NCBI GenBank assembly: GCA_947646735.1
Contig: CANTFK010000990.1
Location: 248,001-312,000, forward strand
Reading direction: 5' to 3'
DNA from: Peronospora farinosa
Taxonomy: Eukaryota; Oomycota; Peronosporomycetes; Peronosporales; Peronosporaceae
Length of the DNA stretch: 64,000 nucleotides
Below are positions 24,411 through 33,780 of this stretch, piece by piece. Positions within the stretch are counted from its first letter, which is position 1, and each line of letters starts with the position of its first letter. Position numbers and translations under genes: made by a program. The notes below the pieces were generated by a model, which worked only from the letters and a program-made list of their open reading frames with translations, was not told the origin of the DNA and searched no databases.

Positions 24411-24939
24411 TGTAGACGGGCACTTCGAAAGAAGCTGCCACGTACTACTAGCGCAAACCTTCAATCTGCGTGAGGAAGAGGTTAGACCGTCTTACTTCCG
24501 CGTGCGATAGTGGTGGTGTTGGTCGGCGCCGAAAGCGCTGTACCAACCGTTCCCGATTGCCTAAGCGAACCGCGCAACGAATACATATCAAAACTTAACT
24601 TGCGTCACGCAAAAGCTTGTTCAGCTTCTTGTGCATAGTGACAGGTAAATAGCAAATCCAAGACTGACTTATATTTAATCGAAAATAATTAAATATAAAT
24701 CTAACTACTGATTGATTAAATGTAAACATCGGATACGCGTCTCTTTAAGAGCGTGAACCTACGTGCGAGCTATTTAAGCTCGCTGATGGAGTTGGTCGGT
24801 GACGTCATCATGTCGCCTAGTCTCAATTGGGCGTCATTTCCGTCGAAGTATATCTAATAGTATATATCACGATCGTAGGTCACATTGAATGTGCCACACT
24901 CAAGCGGGAGGTCTAAGGTATTATGTACCCATTCAGACC
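24411..24939 (-). repeat. Old, diverged family A LTR
   Basis: It begins TGTAGACGGGCAC and follows the family A LTR with many substitutions (CGTCTTAC, AAGCTTGTTC, ATCGGATACGCG blocks). The last part diverges before the left end of the younger element at 24940. It probably represents an earlier insertion into which or next to which the younger element landed. Confidence 0.65.
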
Positions 24940-25538
24940 TGTAGACGGGCACTTCTACGAAGTTGCCTCGTACTACGAGCACACACCTTATTCACAAGCG
25001 AGGAAGCGGTTATACCGTCTTACCTTCGCGTGCGAGGGTGGTTGGGAGGTTGGTCGACTGCTTAAGCAGTCGTACCACCAGTTGCCTCTCGCTTAAGCGA
25101 GAGTGCAACGAACTTCTTAACACTTATAACACCGACGTCACGCAGAAGTCTTTCAACTTCTCGTGCGTGGTGCGTTTGTTTAAGGAAATTCAAGACTGAG
25201 ATATATTTAATTAATTATAACTAAATATATACTTAACTACTGATTGGCTATATATATATATAAATCGGATACGCGACTCTTTAGAAGCGTATCCTGTCGC
25301 ATGATCTTAGATCTAGATTTAAGATCGCAACTCACGTCCTTCTGAGACGTCGTGATGCCTGGCTTCAACTAGCGTCATCCCTTCTCATGTGAATCCATCA
25401 ATGGATATCACATTCACGAGGGTGGATCACCTTTGTGTATCGCACCCAAGTGACTGGTCAAAAGTAATCATGGATACTTTTAGACCAAACATTAAGTATA
25501 TTACTTAATGTTTACGTGTAACTAGGTACCCTGTTACA
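24940..25538 (-). repeat. Element 1 3' LTR
   Basis: 599 bases, TGTAGACGGG to CCTGTTACA on the + strand (TG..CA on the minus strand). It contains perfect palindromes at 25055-25072 and 25086-25103 (18 bases each, both centred on CTTAAG) and a 12-base-pair stem with a 3-base loop at 25487-25513. Confidence 0.9.
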
Positions 25539-25582
25539 CCATCCCCCGTTTTAGAACGATGTTTACATTATATAAAACATCG
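25539..25582 (-). promoter_or_regulatory. Element 1 polypurine tract plus hairpin
   Basis: AAAACGGGGGATGG on the minus strand abuts the 3' LTR. CGATGTTT (25557-25564) pairs with AAACATCG (25575-25582). The same pairing potential remains in the two other family A copies (33090-33115 and 46554-46578). The hairpin also lies in the leader of the antisense ORF. Confidence 0.65.
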
Positions 25583-25644: not shown

Positions 25645-27087
25645 ATGCCACCGAAACGTGGTAAGGCTGATGGGTCGCCTGCAAAGGCACCCATGCAGTC
25701 CAGCACTAAGCGCACGCGCCGCGATTTATCGCAGCCGTCGCAAAGTGCGTCAGGCACTGGGGTGAATCTTCCATCTCACGATAATGTGGATGAAGATCCA
25801 TCTCTCATTGTAGACTACAATGAGACCACACCACTGCCATCACCCCAAAGTGGCGATGAGCATAGTGCATTGATGGGACATATGTCCCTATCATTTGAGG
25901 CACCAGTCCTTGAGGAAGCATCGATGCTTCCTACAAGCGAAGGTAAAACCTCGTCGTCTGCGCCTAAGAGCGCAGCGACTAAGACTGAGCGCGCTACTTC
26001 GAAAGGAGTAGTCGCGACTCAGTCAGATGTAACTTCTCAGGCTGATGTCTTGACAATCCATAATGGAGAGTCAGACTCAGATGAGTGTGAGCTTAAAGCT
26101 CCACCAAGTACACTTTCGGCCTCACTAGCCCGCCGTCGCGAGGGCGGCTACGTGAGTGGTGGCTTGCCACCAATGCCACCTCCATCTGAGTGGATGAACT
26201 CGGATGGGTCTAGCGCAGCGCTTTTGCAGCGTGTCATTATAGACGCTCATAAATTTTATAGCGTCTTTCCTTTGTGGAAAAAGCAGGGCAAAGCACTTGG
26301 TCGTGCTTTCCCAATTCCAGTCGTGCTGCGTTCTAACGAAACAGCCAACGACTATGAAGCTGAACTTCGGCGCCGTGTTACCTTGCAAGAAGATGCAACG
26401 AAACAGCGGTCGCAGCGAATCAGCTTCGCCATGAAGCGTGCGCATGAAATTATGGGCGGTAAGCGACCCCCAATTAATTCTCGCCACGCTTCTTCTGCTA
26501 GTCCTTCCGGACCTAGCAGAAAGAATACAGCTGGTGCTGCTTCACATAAGCAGCTACCAGCCCAGGCACGTCAACGCGAAAAGCGTCCACAGGCTCCCAC
26601 GAGTCAAAGCTCGTTGGGTAACCCTTCCATTGGACAAGGATTTGGAGCTTTCGCTTCACAAACCGGTGGGCCAACAGCCTTCCAACAAGGAAGCGCGTAT
26701 TCCCTTCCGTGTCCACCAACACAGGTGGCGCCCAATAGGAGCGGCGATTACGCCCACCTACTCGCGGCTGCCTATCCTGCTGCTGCTCAGTCGCAGGCTG
26801 AGTCTGCTGCGCTGAAGAGGCAGGTGACAGATCTCGAGAGTCAAGTCTCGCGACTGACCTCGGATCTGCGCGATGTGAGGACGAGAGACCGTCAGGGGTA
26901 TGACCGCCTAAAGTCCCGCTTGGACATCTTAGATCGACTGGTGAGAGACCCACGTCAAGCGCGGAGTCCTCCTCGATCACCGAGTCCTCTATCGCCTCGT
27001 TCATACACGGGGAGCCTTTCGGCTTCCTCGTCGCCTGATCGGTCGCGACGCTCGACTCACAGTCGATGTCACCATCGGTCTCGTTAG
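25645..27087 (+). CDS. Antisense ORF of family A chromovirus (480 residues)
   Basis: Function unknown. It lies on the strand opposite gag-pol, with its ATG 107 bases inside the 3' LTR. The first 289 codons lie beyond the pol stop (26513) and the last 191 overlap the integrase tail and chromodomain. Visible parts: a basic start (MPPKRGKADG, then STKRTRRD, a possible nuclear signal); a low-complexity acidic region to about 150; a conserved middle at about 190-290 (ALLQRVIIDAHKFYSVFPLW, GKALGRAFP, RISFAMK); a Gly/Gln/Ser stretch; a heptad-like coiled coil at about 390-435; and an Arg/Ser/Pro tail ending HHRSR. The second element retains the same protein with changes, and a third copy its first part. 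No similarity to a named family is recognised; loose parallels are retroviral antisense genes such as HBZ. It is the longest intact ORF of this element, since pol is broken. Confidence 0.7.
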   Translation: MPPKRGKADGSPAKAPMQSSTKRTRRDLSQPSQSASGTGVNLPSHDNVDEDPSLIVDYNETTPLPSPQSGDEHSALMGHMSLSFEAPVLEEASMLPTSEGKTSSSAPKSAATKTERATSKGVVATQSDVTSQADVLTIHNGESDSDECELKAPPSTLSASLARRREGGYVSGGLPPMPPPSEWMNSDGSSAALLQRVIIDAHKFYSVFPLWKKQGKALGRAFPIPVVLRSNETANDYEAELRRRVTLQEDATKQRSQRISFAMKRAHEIMGGKRPPINSRHASSASPSGPSRKNTAGAASHKQLPAQARQREKRPQAPTSQSSLGNPSIGQGFGAFASQTGGPTAFQQGSAYSLPCPPTQVAPNRSGDYAHLLAAAYPAAAQSQAESAALKRQVTDLESQVSRLTSDLRDVRTRDRQGYDRLKSRLDILDRLVRDPRQARSPPRSPSPLSPRSYTGSLSASSSPDRSRRSTHSRCHHRSR

Positions 27088-30000
27088 ACCGATGCGGATA
27101 TGTGATCTCTTCTGAATCAACATACCGTTTCAGACGACCCACGTTAAATACGGGGTGCGTCTTCATATACGATGGGAGAGTGAGCCTATAATTTAGGTCT
27201 CCAACTTCTTCAACCACTGTAAAGGGCCCAATGAACCGGGGCAATAGCTTAGTAGTACCACCAGGTAGTACAGAAATTGCATGTTTAGGTAGGGTAGCAG
27301 TACTTAATTGCACTTTGTCCCCAACACTAAAGTGTTCACTGTTTTTGCGACCATGCTGGTCTGCATATTGTTTTTGCTTGTCCTGTGCGCTTGCCATCGC
27401 GTCTATACTTTACGTGTGATGGCTAATCGCTCATGTACAAAGCGCTGAGCTTCGCTCACGCTTTTAGCATCCAGCTCGCCGATGACGCCTCCAAGAGGTC
27501 GTTCATGGGTCGACGCTGTTGATAACACTATAGTGTCATAATCAAGGAGCACTGGAATTTCTTGCCGTGCCTCCTTTGTGACACCTATAGGTGTCGTGAC
27601 CTCTGCTAAATTAGCAGTGTCACTAGGGCAACCTTGGCCCTCTTTGGCATTCGCACCGAGCGAAGTGAGGGGCCCTCCCCCACTAAGACGCGGGCTGCGT
27701 ACAAACGAGACTGGCGTTCGAGGATGACGCAGTCCATTAATGTAAAACGGTGTTTCACCCGTACTACTCCACGAATGGCAATTGCTTGCTCCATTCTTTA
27801 GGAGTCGCTATGGTACGCAACACATCCGCCACGAATCGATTGGCCCGTTCTGTTTTTGGCCATCGGTCTGGGGATGATCAGCGGTGGACATGTGGAGCTT
27901 GCTACCCAGCAACTCAAACACATGTCGCCAAAAACCCGACGTAAAACGCGGATCCCGGTCCGATACTATGGACTCGGGCATCCCGTGTAGTCGATACACG
28001 TGATCCAGAAACAAGAGGGCAGCCTCTTTCCTGAGATCGTGGTGCTACATGGTGCCAAATGCACCATCTTGCTCAGTCTGTCTACAAATACGACGAGCCC
28101 CGTCCTGCCTTTATGGTCAGTCAGTAAGCCAAACATGAAGTACAAACTGACCGACTTCCAACAATCCGTTGGAATCGGCAGTGGCTTCAGTGGCGCACTG
28201 TTCGAAGGTGCAGGCTTTATGCGCTGACACTCTTCGCAAGAGCGAATATAGTTGGCCACCCACCGATATAGATGAGGCCACCAAAATTCCTCTGACACTC
28301 GTAAGAATGTCTTTTCACGACCCAGATGCCCACTAGATGGCGCATCATGGCACTCGTGAAGTATCATCAGCTTGAGATCTGTGTCATGAGGGACATAGAT
28401 TCTCAAGGGATCACAGGGTGACAGTTGATGCCATAACAGACCATCACTGTAACTAAAGCGATTCAACTTCGCTTTGAGGTGCGACGGAAGGGTAACCTTT
28501 CGTCCACCAAAATGATCCAACAGCAGGCGACAATGTTCGTCCTGACTGTAACACTCCTTGATATCGGAGGCCATTGAGATCGTCACATGGTAGGCCCTCA
28601 TGGCTGCCAATGTTGACGACTCAACATGTGCTTTCGCACGAGACACACTTTCCTGGTGTCTTGCCTCGAAGTCTGGTCTGCGCGATAACGCGTCAGCCAA
28701 GACATTTGACTTACCCGGCTTATATTCAACTTTGAAATTAAATTCATAGAAGAATGTTAGCCATCTCGCCATCCTAGGCGAGAGGTGCGGTGAGTTTATA
28801 GCGGTCCGCAGTGATGCGTGATTCGTATAAACCACAAAAGGTTCGGTGCCCAAGAGGTGCACCCGAAACTTCACAAGGACATACTTAATTGAAAGTAGCT
28901 CCTTGTCATGCACAGGATAATTCAGCTCGGCAGCTTTTAAAAGCCGAGACGGATACGATATGACAAGGTCAACGCCGCTGTTATCCTTCTGCATGAGCGC
29001 GCTGCCGATTGCAAAATTGATTGAATCGCAGACGACACTAAAGGGCTTATCCGCGTCTGGCACTGCCAAGACCGGTGCCTCTACAAGAGATTGCGTCACT
29101 GAATCGAACGCATCTTCTTGTTCCTTTGACCAAGTCCATTCTGAATCCTTTTTTAAAAGGTCAGACAATGGCTTGGTCTGCTCCGCATAATTCTTGCTGT
29201 ACTTATGAAAGTAATTAGCGAGCCCAAGGAATTGGCGCAGATCCTTCACATGACGTGGGACTGGCCATTCCTTTACAGCCTTTACCTTTTCTGGGTACCA
29301 TGTGCACCTACGATGCAGCCCAGTACAGGTATCTCGTGGACCCCTATGACGAACTTTTGCAAGTTCACGTATAATTGGGCGTCACCCAGAGTCTGCAACA
29401 CAGCGTCTAAATGACGCTTGTGCGACTTTATTGCGTTCAGACCGTCCTCCGCCCTACTATGCACGAATACATCGTCAAAGTAATGGGGCGCGTAGGCACG
29501 GTGCTGACGCATCACGTGAGCCACCACTCGGTTGAATGTTGCTGGAGCATTTTTCAACCCTTGTAGCATCACAAGCTACTCCCACAGCATACCGCTTGGG
29601 GTGCTTACTGCCGTTTTGGCTACATCGGTATCTCGCATGAGAACCTGATAGTAGCCATCCTTCAGATCCAACGCGGAAAAGATAGTTGACGTTCCCATGG
29701 AATTCAATAAGACATCTTTCCGCGGGATCGGCGTTTGAGCCGGAATGGTGGCCGTGTTCAGCTTATTATAAGAATGGATCACGCGCCATGCACCCGTTGC
29801 TTTACGCACACAGAATGTCGGGCTGCAGTGAGGCGACTTGCTCTCATGTACATGTCCCGCCTTGGCTCGCTTGTCGAAGAATTCATCGATGTAATCGACT
29901 TGTTCCTTCGGCAACGGCCATTGCCTGGTCACACAATACTTGGTGCCAGGCTCCAGGTCAATTTCGTGCCTGATTCCCCTATCGGCCGGTAGGCGGCTCG

Positions 30001-31360
30001 GCACTTCTGCTGGAAACACATCACGGTGTTTCCACGGAACATCATAGAACGGGCTGTCCTTCAAGGCATCCCAGCCTTGAGCAGCGAACCGTTTCTTTTT
30101 GTCGGTCTCCAAGACGCTCTCATCCATTGTGGATGAAGAGCAACAGTCCACCACGTTCTCTTCTGGAACTGGTGCGACTATCTCGTGGATCTTTCCTTCC
30201 TTTAGTTCAGACAGGAACAGATCCCACGTCATCTACGAGAGATTTACTATCTCCTCGGCAGATGCCAAGACAAGTTGGAGCACCTCAACTAAGGATGCCT
30301 CCGGCATTTTGTCTTCGACGGCCTCGAACAACTCGTTCGTAGGTCCGTCCTCTTGGACCGAGACTGATCCAAGGTTCACTCGTTTCGACGTGCCCTTAAT
30401 CGTCTTAATACGTCTGGTGCTCGTTCTTCGAGTCACCACGACCTTTGACCTGGAAGAAAGTGTCGTTGCTTCGTCAGCTAACGCACTCCTTCCAACCGCA
30501 CCAGGCTCTTGGCTCTGTGCCTTAGAGACTTTGATATGAAGCAGATTCCGGTGAATAGTCTCAATGTGGTTCTTGTGGCGCTTGACTTGCTGTCAGTCCA
30601 CCATCAACTGCCACAGGCTCTCGGCTCTGTGCAGGACCATTGGACGCATGACTACTTGTCACATCGCCCCATTCACTACACCAGTCTTTTCGACCTGGGT
30701 AGGAATATGTGTCACCTGGCTTTCCGCCAGTGCACTCACAACTACACCACTCATTTCGAGCTGGGTAGTCCCTGGTGTCGATTGACATACCGTCATCGCA
30801 CCCTCGACTGTGTTGGACACAGCATCAGCCACATAAGCCTCTCGCAGGAGCACATCCTTTCCGGTGTCCTGCGTAGAGTTAGCGACTGTTCGTGTACGCC
30901 AGTCTATCCATGGTTGGTGTTGAGCCAACCAAGGCATGCCTAGGATAGGGTCATACGGACTCTCCATACCTAGCACTGTGAACTTCTCTTTACAGGAGAA
31001 GTCACTGAAACTGAAGGTGAGTTCAACTTGAACTCCCTCCGACTTAACGAGTGCACCGTTCGCTAAACGAACGATCGCCTCTTCTCGCTTGCCATCCTGG
31101 CAAAGCGACTCATAACTAGCCGGTCTCCTTTTCAGAGCCGCGAGTTTCACAAAGTTTTGTGATGCACCCGAATCCACGAGAAGGGTCATCACTTGGTCAT
31201 AGCCTCGTACTCGAGCGCTATATACCAAAAGGGTTGAGGTCCGACCTTTCGGAACCTCAGGGACTATGCTACCCATTTGTTCGATCACTATGAACTTAGG
31301 GGTAGCTTCAGAGTCCGCGACAGTAGGGCATCCCGCCCCTACTGCGCTCCCGCATTTCCC
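26513..31360 (-). pseudogene. Element 1 pol (protease, RT, RNase H, integrase, chromodomain), broken
   Basis: The minus-strand order is protease (LLVDSGAS near 31185-31161), reverse transcriptase (YFDDVFVHSR near 29486-29461), RNase H and tether (VLADALSRRPDF), integrase zinc region (HLGREKTF, CEECQRIKP), core (FVDRLSKM, DRDPRFTSGFW) and chromodomain (VQWKGYPTSFDSWEPVDAF) ending at 26513. Against element 2 the lesions are a nonsense codon at 30233-30235, a Trp-to-stop at 29576-29578, a 10-base deletion near 29300, and breaks near 28000 and 27400. The integrase motif reads LYFMFGL where element 2 has LDFMFGL, so a catalytic Asp is lost. Pol lies in the -1 frame relative to gag. Confidence 0.9.
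31321..31360 (-). promoter_or_regulatory. -1 ribosomal frameshift signal, element 1 gag-pol
   Basis: On the minus strand the gag codons TCG GGA AAT form the slippery heptamer G GGA AAT (31360-31354) in the correct register. After a 9-base spacer, CAGTAGGG pairs perfectly with CCCTACTG around an 8-base loop (31344-31321). The gag stop TAG lies inside the stem. From the slip, the -1 frame is open straight into the protease. Element 2 has the identical heptamer, spacer length and stem. Confidence 0.8.
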
Positions 31361-32421
31361 GACCCATCTTGGGCAGGTGCTGAACCCGTGCGTCGTGCAC
31401 GCTGGTTTTTCGCACCTCCCTTCGGGTTGGGAGACCTTTTGCTGGCTGCCTTAGCATCAGCAGCAAGTTTGGCATAGCAGCGAGCCATCATATGGCCTCG
31501 CTTGCCGCACTTGTAGCAGATAGCATCTGCATTGACTAACTCCATAGGAGTGGCATCAGACCTTTCGGTCGACGGCCTGTAATAGGCTTTCGTCGAGGCG
31601 CTCTTGTAGGATTGCTCCTCAATCAAGGCAATGTTAATTGCCTCTTCCATCGTCGCTGGCATCTTTCTGAAAAGGGCCTGACGCGATGGGCCATGCCTAA
31701 GTCCATTCATGAACGTGGCTACCTTGATACGCTTTGGTATCGGTTCCCCATTGATGGACGCCGACAGCGAACGCATCTCCTGCACAAACTCTTGCAGAGA
31801 GCGTTTCGCCTGTCGTGCTCCAAAGAAGCGCGCCATAAGCAACACTTCGTTGTTAGGCGGCTGATACATGGCGCGAATCTTTGACTTAAAGATCGCCCAT
31901 GATGGAAATGCATCAGCATTTGCCATCAGCGCAGAGTATGCCCACTCTGACGCTTTGCCACGCAAGTTGGACATGGCATACGACACCATTCTGGTGTCGT
32001 CTTCGATGAGCTGCGCCATACCGCATTGCTCAACTGCTAATAGCCAGTGATTAATCGCGTGAGGGCTAGTTCCATCGAACTTCGGAGGGTCCATCCGAAT
32101 GGGCCTCGGTTGAGCAGGCCGGGCAGAGAGCGTCTCAACAGTCCTGTTGAGCGCCTCATTACGTGCCTGCTCAATCCTAAGCTCATCCTGAGTCTTAGTG
32201 ATGGACTCAGCGGTGGCTTGGCTGTTCACCTCGGACGCGTTTCTACGCTGTCCGAGCACAAACGTCTCAAATTGCTCCAACTGAGCAACATGTTGCTCAG
32301 GAGGACAATGCAAGAGATTGACCAGGGCTTGTTCACCAAGTATCTGTGCCATATGCTCTGCCAACTTCCTATGATGTTGGGAGAGGTGAGGGAAGTCACT
32401 CCAGTCCATATTAAGGACCAT
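31339..32421 (-). CDS. Element 1 Gag
   Basis: This is the structural protein of the virus-like particle. The intact 360-residue frame runs from the ATG at 32421 (MVLNMDWSDFPHL); the open frame extends 5 codons upstream but begins with GTG. It has a helical N-terminal part with a coiled-coil look (residues 20-115), the gag core motif PPKFDGTSPHAINHWLLA, the conserved block FFGARQAKRSLQEFVQEMRS, and one CCHC zinc knuckle (CYKCGKRGHMMARC) near the basic C-terminus. It ends at the amber codon inside the frameshift hairpin. The leader from LTR to ATG is only about 60 bases. Confidence 0.88.
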   Translation of the reverse strand: MVLNMDWSDFPHLSQHHRKLAEHMAQILGEQALVNLLHCPPEQHVAQLEQFETFVLGQRRNASEVNSQATAESITKTQDELRIEQARNEALNRTVETLSARPAQPRPIRMDPPKFDGTSPHAINHWLLAVEQCGMAQLIEDDTRMVSYAMSNLRGKASEWAYSALMANADAFPSWAIFKSKIRAMYQPPNNEVLLMARFFGARQAKRSLQEFVQEMRSLSASINGEPIPKRIKVATFMNGLRHGPSRQALFRKMPATMEEAINIALIEEQSYKSASTKAYYRPSTERSDATPMELVNADAICYKCGKRGHMMARCYAKLAADAKAASKRSPNPKGGAKNQRARRTGSAPAQDGSGNAGAQ

Positions 32422-32469
32422 GTTAACCACACGCACGCTCAGAGAGACGGGTCGTGGGAAGGACTACTA

Positions 32470-32480: not shown

Positions 32481-33069
32481 TGTAGACGGGCACTTCTATG
32501 AAGTTGCCTCGTACTACGAGCACACACCTTATGCACAAGCGAGGAAGCGATTTGACCGTCTTACCTTCGCGTGCGAGGGTGGTTGGGAGGTTGGTCGACT
32601 GCTTAAGCAGTCGTACCACCAGTTGCCTCTCGCTTAAGCGAGAACGCAACGAACAATTATCAAGTGTCCTACTTACGTCACGCAGAAGCTTACTTGTGCG
32701 TAGTAGACAGTGTAGTAAATTCAAGACTGAGCTATATTTAATTAATTATAACTAAATATATACTTAACTACTGATTGGCTATATATATATATAGATCGGA
32801 TACGCGACTCTTTAGAAGCGTATCCTGTCGCATGATCTTAGATCTAGATTTAAGCTCGCTAATGACGTCCTTCTGAGACGTCGTGATGCCTAGCTTCAAC
32901 TAGCGTCATCCCTTCTTATGTGAATCCATCAATGGATATCACATTCACGAGGGTGGATCACATTTGTGTATCGCACCCAAGTGACAGGTCAGAAGTAATC
33001 ATGGATACTTTTAGACCAAACATTAAGTATATTACTTAATGTTTACGTGTAACTAGATACCCTGTTACA
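32481..33069 (-). repeat. Element 1 right-hand LTR, flanked by internal sequence on both sides
   Basis: 589 bases from TGTAGACGGG to CCTGTTACA. Its left side is the primer binding site, as for a 5' LTR. Its right side (33070 on) is a polypurine-tract complement, hairpin and antisense ORF start, as for a 3' LTR. In the middle (CAATTATCAAGTGTCCTAC block) it matches the element 2 LTRs, not its own left partner. Confidence 0.9.
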
Positions 33070-33123
33070 CCATCCCCCGTTTTAGAACGATGTTTACATT
33101 TTGTAAAACATCGAAAAGAGACG

Positions 33124-33780
33124 ATGCCACCGAAACGTGGTAAGGCTGATGGGTCACCTGAAAAGGCGCTCATGCAGACCAAAACAAAGCGCACGCGCCG
33201 CGATAACTCGCAGCCGTCGCTGAGTGTCTCTGTGACAAAGTCGACATCTAATTTTAGCTTGTCAGCAGGGAACACTACTTATTGCGCGGATGAAGTTCTG
33301 TCTCTCGTAGAATACAATGAGAGCACGCCACTGCTATCACCTTAAAGTGGTGATTAAAACAGCGCATTGATGGGACATATACCCCATCTTTTAAGATACT
33401 CAATCTTCAAGAAGCTTTGCGCTTTATAACAGTGAGGTTCATACTTCGTCGTATGCGCGAAAACGAGCGCATCAACCACAACTCAGCGCGCTGCTTCAAA
33501 AGAAAGGCCGCGAATTAACAGCAGGTCGGCGATCCTAAATCGCTCACCTCTGCCAACCCTACGTCTGTAGTCTTGACAATCCATAATGGAGAGTCAGACT
33601 CAGACAAAAGTATGCAATATTTCTTGGACTTCACAGTCGTACTCACTAGCACGCAGTCGTGAGGCGACTACTTTATTGGTGTCTTGCCACCAATGCCACC
33701 GCCATTTGAGTGGTCACACTCGAGTGTTAGTAGTCCTTGAGCGTGCCACTGTTAACGCTAATAAACCTTTTACACCCTTC
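33124..33780 (+). pseudogene. Truncated antisense ORF of a second family A copy
   Basis: It starts MPPKRGKADGSP exactly as in element 1, 54 bases past the LTR, and is open to 33345. Homology continues with stops and shifts through the TIHNGESDSD and LPPMPPPFEW blocks to about 33780, where it is cut by a family C LTR. The rest of that element is missing. Strong conservation of the first codons contrasts with the decay downstream. Confidence 0.75.

What the first reader, a model, noticed from the sequence alone, without database searches (positions are those of the whole stretch)
25645..27087. Long antisense gene at the 3' end of a chromovirus, overlapping the chromodomain
A 480-codon ORF runs opposite to gag-pol, starts just inside the 3' LTR and overlaps the pol end by 575 bases. 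About 290 codons lie outside pol, so it is not a mere shadow. In the overlap its third codon positions face pol second positions, so both proteins are constrained. Layout (basic N-terminus, coiled coil, Arg/Ser tail) suggests a nuclear, nucleic-acid or splicing-related protein. Antisense genes are known in some retroviruses and a few plant elements, but I know of none like this in oomycetes.
Basis: partly seen in the sequence, partly recalled or inferred. Interest (0 to 1): 0.88.

Follow-up and report, generated by a model that had tools for sequence, protein, structure and literature searches.

The report
Antisense gene in downy-mildew retrotransposons
A family of jumping genes in a downy-mildew relative carries an extra gene written backwards across the end of its main gene; natural selection has preserved the protein, so it probably helps the element, although its job is not yet known.

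Summary
A 480-codon ORF (25645-27087, + strand) lies opposite gag-pol of a Ty3/Gypsy chromovirus in a Peronospora genome. It starts 106 bp internal to the 3' LTR and overlaps the chromodomain end of pol by 575 bp. It is a selected protein gene, not a shadow of pol. Of 50 aligned copies, 20 are intact. Variants shared by three or more copies avoid amino-acid change in the ORF frame outside pol; singletons do not. Five homologues at 45-61% identity exist elsewhere, four nearly full length. In the overlap, constraint is partitioned: the antisense coil and Arg/Ser tail are conserved where pol has only a linker; over the chromodomain the trend reverses. A second chromovirus family (33% identical pol end) has its own long antisense ORF in the same place and register, with Arg/Ser repeats and a zipper-like segment, but no detectable sequence similarity. 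Both have an inverted repeat 18 nt from the LTR end. It resembles the antisense extra ORFs of plant Grande/RIRE2/Retand and fungal Boty, without a TRP28 match. Best guess: a nuclear, oligomeric, nucleic-acid-binding accessory protein. Transcription and function are untested.

The parts
25645..27087 (+). Antisense accessory ORF (aORF), 480 codons
   Evidence: intact in 20 of 50 aligned copies; dN/dS 0.47-0.49 outside pol; homologues
25645..25752 (+). aORF N-terminus, residues 1-36, basic, NLS-like by eye (MPPKRGKADGSPAKAP...KRTRR)
   Evidence: 53-72% identical in five distant homologues; NLS is inference
26134..26511 (+). aORF conserved core, residues 164-289, outside pol
   Evidence: 53-71% identical in five distant homologues; shared-variant N/S ratio 0.42, P=0.003; fold unknown
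26746..26946 (+). aORF coiled coil, residues 368-434
   Evidence: Single long helix; block pLDDT 50-92, 88-92 for residues 391-430; faces the pol linker between SH3 and chromodomain
26953..27084 (+). aORF Arg/Ser/Pro-rich tail, residues 437-480
   Evidence: Sequence; 49-63% identical in the four distant homologues that reach it
26513..27397 (-). End of pol: SH3_Tf2-1 domain, linker, chromodomain
   Evidence: PF24626 1.3e-16 and PF00385 9.1e-8
26543..26686 (-). Chromodomain (pol-end residues 238-285), faced by a disordered part of aORF
   Evidence: in 26516-26689 pol N/S ratio 0.57 (P=0.12) and aORF 2.75, on 21 shared variants
25539..25552 (-). Polypurine tract (sense AAAACGGGGGATGG)
   Evidence: Read by eye next to the LTR end
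25557..25582 (.). Inverted repeat between PPT and the aORF start
   Evidence: arms of 7-9 bp in 45 of 50 copies; the second family has a different repeat at the same distance
24940..25538 (-). 3' LTR
   Evidence: 92.2% identical to the 5' LTR
32481..33069 (-). 5' LTR
31339..32463 (-). gag (Retrotrans_gag; weak CCHC match)
   Evidence: PF03732 1e-14; zf-CCHC 0.0037, under its cut-off
27966..31450 (-). Protease, RT, RNase H and integrase parts of pol, in several broken frames in this copy

Best explanation
The ORF is a genuine accessory gene of an oomycete chromovirus, arranged tail-to-tail with pol and sharing pol's last 575 bp. Shown: the protein is under purifying selection while the element is active and near neutral after insertion, and it has relatives at 45-61% identity. 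Inferred: it is made from an antisense mRNA that starts in the short PPT-to-ATG spacer or the adjoining U3 of the 3' LTR. Proposed mechanism (probability about 0.4): a nuclear protein that oligomerises through its coiled coil and binds the element's RNA or DNA through its basic N-terminus and Arg/Ser tail, tuning expression or nuclear handling and integration of the element, in the manner proposed for Grande gene23. The confidence below is for the first sentence only.
For: Intact in 20 of 50 aligned copies. dN/dS outside pol 0.47 (20 intact) and 0.49 (all 50); core 0.33 and 0.37. Variants in three or more copies: N/S ratio 0.58, P=0.003 for codons 1-289; singletons 0.97. By codon position, columns with a shared second allele 29/25/53 and with a singleton 92/87/73. 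Outside pol the 20 intact copies have 0 stops in the ORF frame and 6-35 in the other five frames. Distant homologues. Of 6 loci fetched by their pol SH3 domain rather than by the ORF, 6 carry ORF sequence, one of them only residues 352-480 (the six best of 150 matches). A second family has the same layout. Coiled coil predicted.
Against: No transcript, protein or localisation was seen. The P values are simulation-based and uncorrected for the 32 tests. One minus frame, whose third positions coincide with those of the ORF, also looks low (dN/dS 0.56-0.58; shared ratio 0.72, P=0.05), though it has 6-11 stops. Selection on codons 1-163 alone is weak (0.70, P=0.08). The diverged copy L056 has core dN/dS 1.15 on few substitutions. 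In the second family, codons outside pol show no third-position excess among 5 copies (25/30/24). 30 of 50 copies are not intact by the rule used. No domain or fold supports nucleic-acid binding.
Confidence: 0.9

Rival explanations
1. The ORF is only a shadow of pol or chance openness, with no protein.
For: It overlaps pol by 575 bp, and frames opposite coding DNA can stay open by chance.
Against: 289 codons lie outside pol; pol-frame stops there number 11-21 per intact copy; selection follows the ORF frame; distant homologues.
Confidence: 0.02
2. The antisense RNA, not the protein, matters: it pairs with genomic RNA and limits copy number.
For: Any antisense mRNA for the ORF must pair with at least 1.4 kb of the sense RNA (coordinates). 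Antisense RNA control is discussed for such elements in PMC7264820 (parts 1 and 2 of 3 read).
Against: RNA control would not produce codon-position-specific selection. The spacer showed no covarying RNA pairs (0 of 15).
Confidence: 0.06
3. The protein counters RNA silencing provoked by the sense/antisense double strand, for instance by binding dsRNA or Argonaute complexes.
For: Convergent overlap makes dsRNA likely if both strands are transcribed; the protein is Arg-rich at both ends; small RNAs homologous to transposable elements are reported for Phytophthora infestans (PMC3522703, title and abstract start in listings).
Against: No dsRNA-binding domain or fold match.
Confidence: 0.15
4. The protein is a structural or RNP component packaged with Gag, not a nuclear regulator.
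For: Long coiled coil, otherwise mostly disordered, basic tail.
Against: No Gag-like domain in the ORF; the element has its own gag. That an antisense promoter is an odd way to make a structural protein is my opinion.
Confidence: 0.15
5. It is a captured host gene.
For: Genes with their own promoter can enter elements by transduction or insertion (discussed in PMC7264820).
Against: All named hits are Peronospora proteins; 50 of 50 aligned copies continue into the pol end; no homologue outside the element was seen in these searches.
Confidence: 0.07

Closest known systems
[quoted passage not shown]
   Same: Antisense, between pol and 3' LTR, present across copies, protein of unknown function; Grande's is nuclear with its own promoter (PMC7264820, parts 1 and 2 of 3 read)
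   Different: Host is an oomycete; the element is a chromovirus (Retand is a non-chromovirus, PMC11963269 passages); overlaps pol and the chromodomain; pol-to-LTR region about 1 kb instead of 2.9-6.6 kb in Retand; no TRP28 (PF04195) match; no named protein outside Peronospora among the hits. Plant sequences were not compared directly
Boty of Botrytis cinerea
   Different: Fungal; sequence not compared here
HTLV-1 HBZ and HIV-1 ASP antisense genes
   Same: Antisense genes of retroelements; HBZ is nuclear (PMC11963269 passage) and a coiled-coil bZIP protein (recalled)
   Different: No bZIP match here; not retroviral; no direct sequence comparison made
Oomycete Chronos elements (PMC5348765, passages)
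   Same: Oomycete Ty3/Gypsy with a chromodomain
   Different: Chronos carries an extra plant-type RNase H; Pfam reported none in this element's RNase H-integrase stretch. The word antisense does not occur in that paper's main text

Membership tests
Antisense aORF between pol and 3' LTR (aORF-3R) | ORF antisense to gag-pol, between pol and the 3' LTR | tested here: met
   with 40% of its length overlapping pol
Antisense aORF between pol and 3' LTR (aORF-3R) | Present in most copies of the family | tested here: met
   6 of 6 loci fetched by the pol SH3 domain carry ORF sequence, one only residues 352-480; only the six best of 150 matches were examined
Antisense aORF between pol and 3' LTR (aORF-3R) | Antisense transcript from its own promoter | not testable with these tools
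   No RNA data held
Retand/RIRE2-type TRP28 proteins | Transposase_28 domain PF04195 | tested here: not met
   Pfam scan of the ORF at E up to 1 and of 7 members of alignment A1 at E up to 0.1 lists no PF04195; sequence-profile test only
HBZ-type antisense bZIP regulators | bZIP domain | tested here: not met
   No bZIP family in the Pfam scans; only weak coiled-coil-type hits
Chromovirus (Ty3/Gypsy) | gag, protease, RT-RNase H, integrase order with a C-terminal chromodomain and LTRs | tested here: met
Chromovirus (Ty3/Gypsy) | RT phylogeny within chromoviruses | not tested
   No tree built
Chronos | Additional plant-type RNase H domain | tested here: not met
   Pfam scan of window 27969-29381 lists RT_RNaseH, RT_RNaseH_2, Integrase_H2C2 and zf-H2C2 only

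The most novel reading that the evidence does not exclude
Oomycete chromoviruses share an ancestral third gene, antisense to and tail-overlapping pol, kept through the divergence of at least two families. Its coiled coil is moulded against the pol linker, while its N-terminal domain has been replaced or has diverged beyond recognition. A palindrome at a fixed distance from the PPT acts as its promoter or operator, making the element a two-strand, self-regulated genome.
Probability: 0.3. Interest if true: 0.82.

Novelty: new variant of a known kind. Interest (0 to 1): 0.64.

Why it matters
Antisense extra genes are described mainly from plant retrotransposons and some retroviruses, with no settled function in the former (PMC7264820). 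Here two chromovirus families of an oomycete have them in the same place and register, so either an old antisense gene or repeated invention is at work. The many copies make selection measurable, and the overlap shows how two proteins on opposite strands divide one stretch of DNA between them. It gives testable predictions about antisense promoters, double-stranded RNA and what the protein does for the element. It is also a caution for annotation: in P. effusa records these proteins appear as 'unnamed protein product'.

Tried and rejected
Shadow or chance ORF: rejected. Coding on the sense strand in the pol-LTR gap: the three minus frames carry 6-21 stops per intact copy in codons 1-289; one of them shows a low dN/dS, which I put down to its third positions coinciding with those of the ORF.

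Structured RNA in the spacer: the window spacer folds well as RNA (z -4.96), but the 50-sequence alignment gives 15 pairs with no double change; not supported. The sigma-70 scan does not apply to oomycetes.

Relatives elsewhere: viral contigs and genome-contig scans found none. Profile comparison of the two antisense families: probability 2%, 23 columns in the coil; BLASTP best E 1.4. Common descent of the proteins is not shown.

One search ended in an error and counted overlapping matches twice (L046); one search replaced it for L059, L056 and L062 only. One search failed on a search term and was not repeated in that form.

Full report
What is there. The window lies in a 46.9-Mb genome whose closest named protein relatives are Peronospora effusa and P. 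farinosa. The best match of the main P. effusa protein among the fetched loci is 95.8%, so I say Peronospora, species not fixed. On the minus strand is a Ty3/Gypsy element: 5' LTR 32481-33069, gag 31339-32463, protease, RT, RNase H and integrase in several broken frames, and a last pol segment 27397-26513 with an SH3_Tf2-1 domain and a C-terminal chromodomain. The 3' LTR is 24940-25538, preceded in the sense direction by a polypurine tract (by eye). On the plus strand, 106 bp from the LTR, begins the 480-codon ORF, which runs tail-to-tail into pol and shares its last 575 bp.

Is it a gene? Forty-nine other copies fetched by similarity to the ORF were aligned with the window copy (n=50, none dropped). 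Twenty keep a full ATG-to-stop frame of 480-481 codons. In a wider scan of the genome 22 of 89 scored matches cover residues 1-480 without a stop (counted from the table; only 89 of 1219 candidates were scored). Outside pol, dN/dS in the ORF frame is 0.47 for the intact copies and 0.49 for all 50, against 0.98-1.21 for the other two plus frames; in residues 170-289 it is 0.33 and 0.37. One minus frame also looks low (0.56-0.58), because, I think, its third positions coincide with those of the ORF; it contains 6-11 stops per intact copy.

The time course is informative. Columns whose second allele occurs in one copy only, mostly changes after insertion, fall fairly evenly on codon positions 1, 2 and 3 (92, 87, 73), while those with a second allele in three or more copies, mostly inherited through active elements, fall 29, 25, 53. 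Against a substitution-matched simulation the nonsynonymous to synonymous ratio in codons 1-289 is 0.97 for singletons and 0.58 (P=0.003) for shared variants; the other five frames give 1.60, 1.33, 1.27, 1.15 and, for the minus frame just mentioned, 0.72 (P=0.05). So the protein is selected while the element replicates and decays freely afterwards, as expected of an element gene. Against this: codons 1-163 alone give 0.70 with P=0.08, and the P values are uncorrected for 32 tests.

Relatives. A search of 5.8 billion proteins returned 14 proteins: eight named P. effusa or P. farinosa, one unnamed at 85%, and five unnamed divergent ones at 45-61% identity (sources labelled lgn and ena), four of which cover 87-100% of the query. 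Only the 7994 candidates sharing most words were scored. A profile search gave 17, and a search with the core of the most distant one added one more. The opening residues, the core, the coil and the tail are shared (P0014 lacks the coil and tail); across the five divergent proteins identity is highest in the N-terminus (53-72%), core (53-71%) and linker/coil (48-69%) and lower in the acidic stretch 63-163 (35-57%) and in the part facing the chromodomain (34-53%). Whether these relatives also overlap a pol gene could not be seen.

The overlap is partitioned. Among shared variants, in 26690-27084 (pol linker; antisense coil and tail; 51 variants) the antisense frame is constrained (0.44, P=0.0015) and pol is not (1.68). 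In 26516-26689 (chromodomain; 21 variants) pol leans to constraint (0.57, P=0.12) and the antisense frame does not (2.75). Beyond the overlap pol is 0.46, P=0.02. Three diverged copies agree for the coil and tail: antisense dN/dS 0.44, 0.25 and 0.42, and pol linker 1.32, 1.93 and 0.97 (L059, L056, L062). In the same copies the pol part outside the overlap gives 0.84, 0.93 and 1.02 on few changes, so they do not by themselves show selection on pol; the chromodomain gives 0.84 (L059) and 0.23 (L056). Each protein thus tends to be conserved where the other is a spacer. Two copies are mosaic: L059 in antisense codons 1-348 (dN 0.65-0.74) and L056 in codons 1-163 (dN 0.28), against dN 0.05-0.06 in the coil and tail, which suggests exchange between subfamilies.

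A second family. Searching the genome with the SH3_Tf2-1 domain (150 of 1623 candidates scored) revealed, besides this family, a second chromovirus family; two loci, L064 and L065, were read first. Its pol end is 33% identical to that of the window. It too has an antisense ORF of about 460 codons (460 in L068): N-terminal domain with a Cys/His cluster (by eye), long RS-repeat stretch, an alanine-zipper-like segment (PF11839, E 2e-4 to 3e-4, just under its cut-off), basic tail. A search with its first 302 residues gave 152 matches, of which 36 cover 1-302 without a stop (counted from the table). The register to pol is the same (position 1 faces position 1), the zipper segment again faces the linker between SH3 and chromodomain, and the ORF ends 4 bp from the SH3 domain here and 31 bp from it in the window (coordinates). 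Of the variable columns among 5 copies, those facing the chromodomain fall 4/11/3 on antisense positions 1, 2, 3, those facing the linker 12/8/19, those facing the pol tail beyond the chromodomain 7/14/11, and those outside pol 25/30/24: the same partition in the overlap, but no sign of selection on the N-terminal part; the counts are small and one copy has a replaced segment. The two antisense proteins are not detectably similar. Common descent and independent origin are both open; shared position, register and architecture favour common descent, as inference.

The start region. In both families an inverted repeat begins exactly 18 nt from the LTR end, next to the PPT and upstream of the antisense ATG, but the sequences differ: CGATGTTT...AAACATCG in the window, AGCACTCAC...GTGAGTGCT in L065. 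Arms this long arose in 14 of 2000 and 1 of 2000 simulations. In family 1 the right arm is nearly invariant, and arms of 7-9 bp are present in 45 of 50 copies. It may belong to the antisense promoter or to plus-strand priming at the PPT; I cannot tell which.

Mechanism. Shown: a selected protein; predicted: one confident coiled coil, otherwise mostly disordered. Inferred from composition: nuclear entry, nucleic-acid binding, oligomerisation. Inferred from layout: an antisense mRNA able to pair with at least 1.4 kb of genomic RNA. The most likely role is a nuclear accessory factor acting on the element's own nucleic acid; a silencing antagonist and a particle component are the main rivals.

Comparison. 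Plant Grande, RIRE2, Retand and PvRetro13 and fungal Boty have antisense ORFs between pol and the 3' LTR (PMC7264820, parts 1 and 2 of 3 read), and Retand proteins mostly have a TRP28 domain (PMC11963269, passages). The present gene belongs to that descriptive class but has no TRP28 match, sits in chromoviruses of an oomycete and overlaps the chromodomain. Searches for prior reports in oomycetes (listings) and passages in PMC5348765 and PMC6570648 showed none; the library holds open-licence papers only.

Noticed in passing
window 33070-33722: Upstream of the 5' LTR lies a decayed second copy of the PPT and the start of the antisense ORF (82-95% in pieces), so the element seems to share its LTR with a neighbouring older copy, as after unequal recombination.
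   Followed up: partly
window 24650-24812: Fragments about 66-78% similar to the LTR lie just outside the 3' LTR, probably an older LTR remnant.
   Followed up: no
L065 490-1872 (minus strand); L064, L066-L068: Second chromovirus family with its own long antisense ORF: Cys/His N-terminal domain, RS repeats, alanine-zipper-like segment.
   Followed up: partly
window 25557-25582 and L065 1930-1908: Different inverted repeats at the identical distance of 18 nt from the LTR end in the two families.
   Followed up: partly
L059 1-1470, L056 830-2466: Mosaic copies: antisense N-terminal codons strongly diverged (1-348 in L059, 1-163 in L056) while coil and tail are nearly standard.
   Followed up: partly
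L064 3203-3811: 202-codon open frame with coiled-coil-like and RS-like repeats in the flank of the second-family copy; not identified.
   Followed up: no
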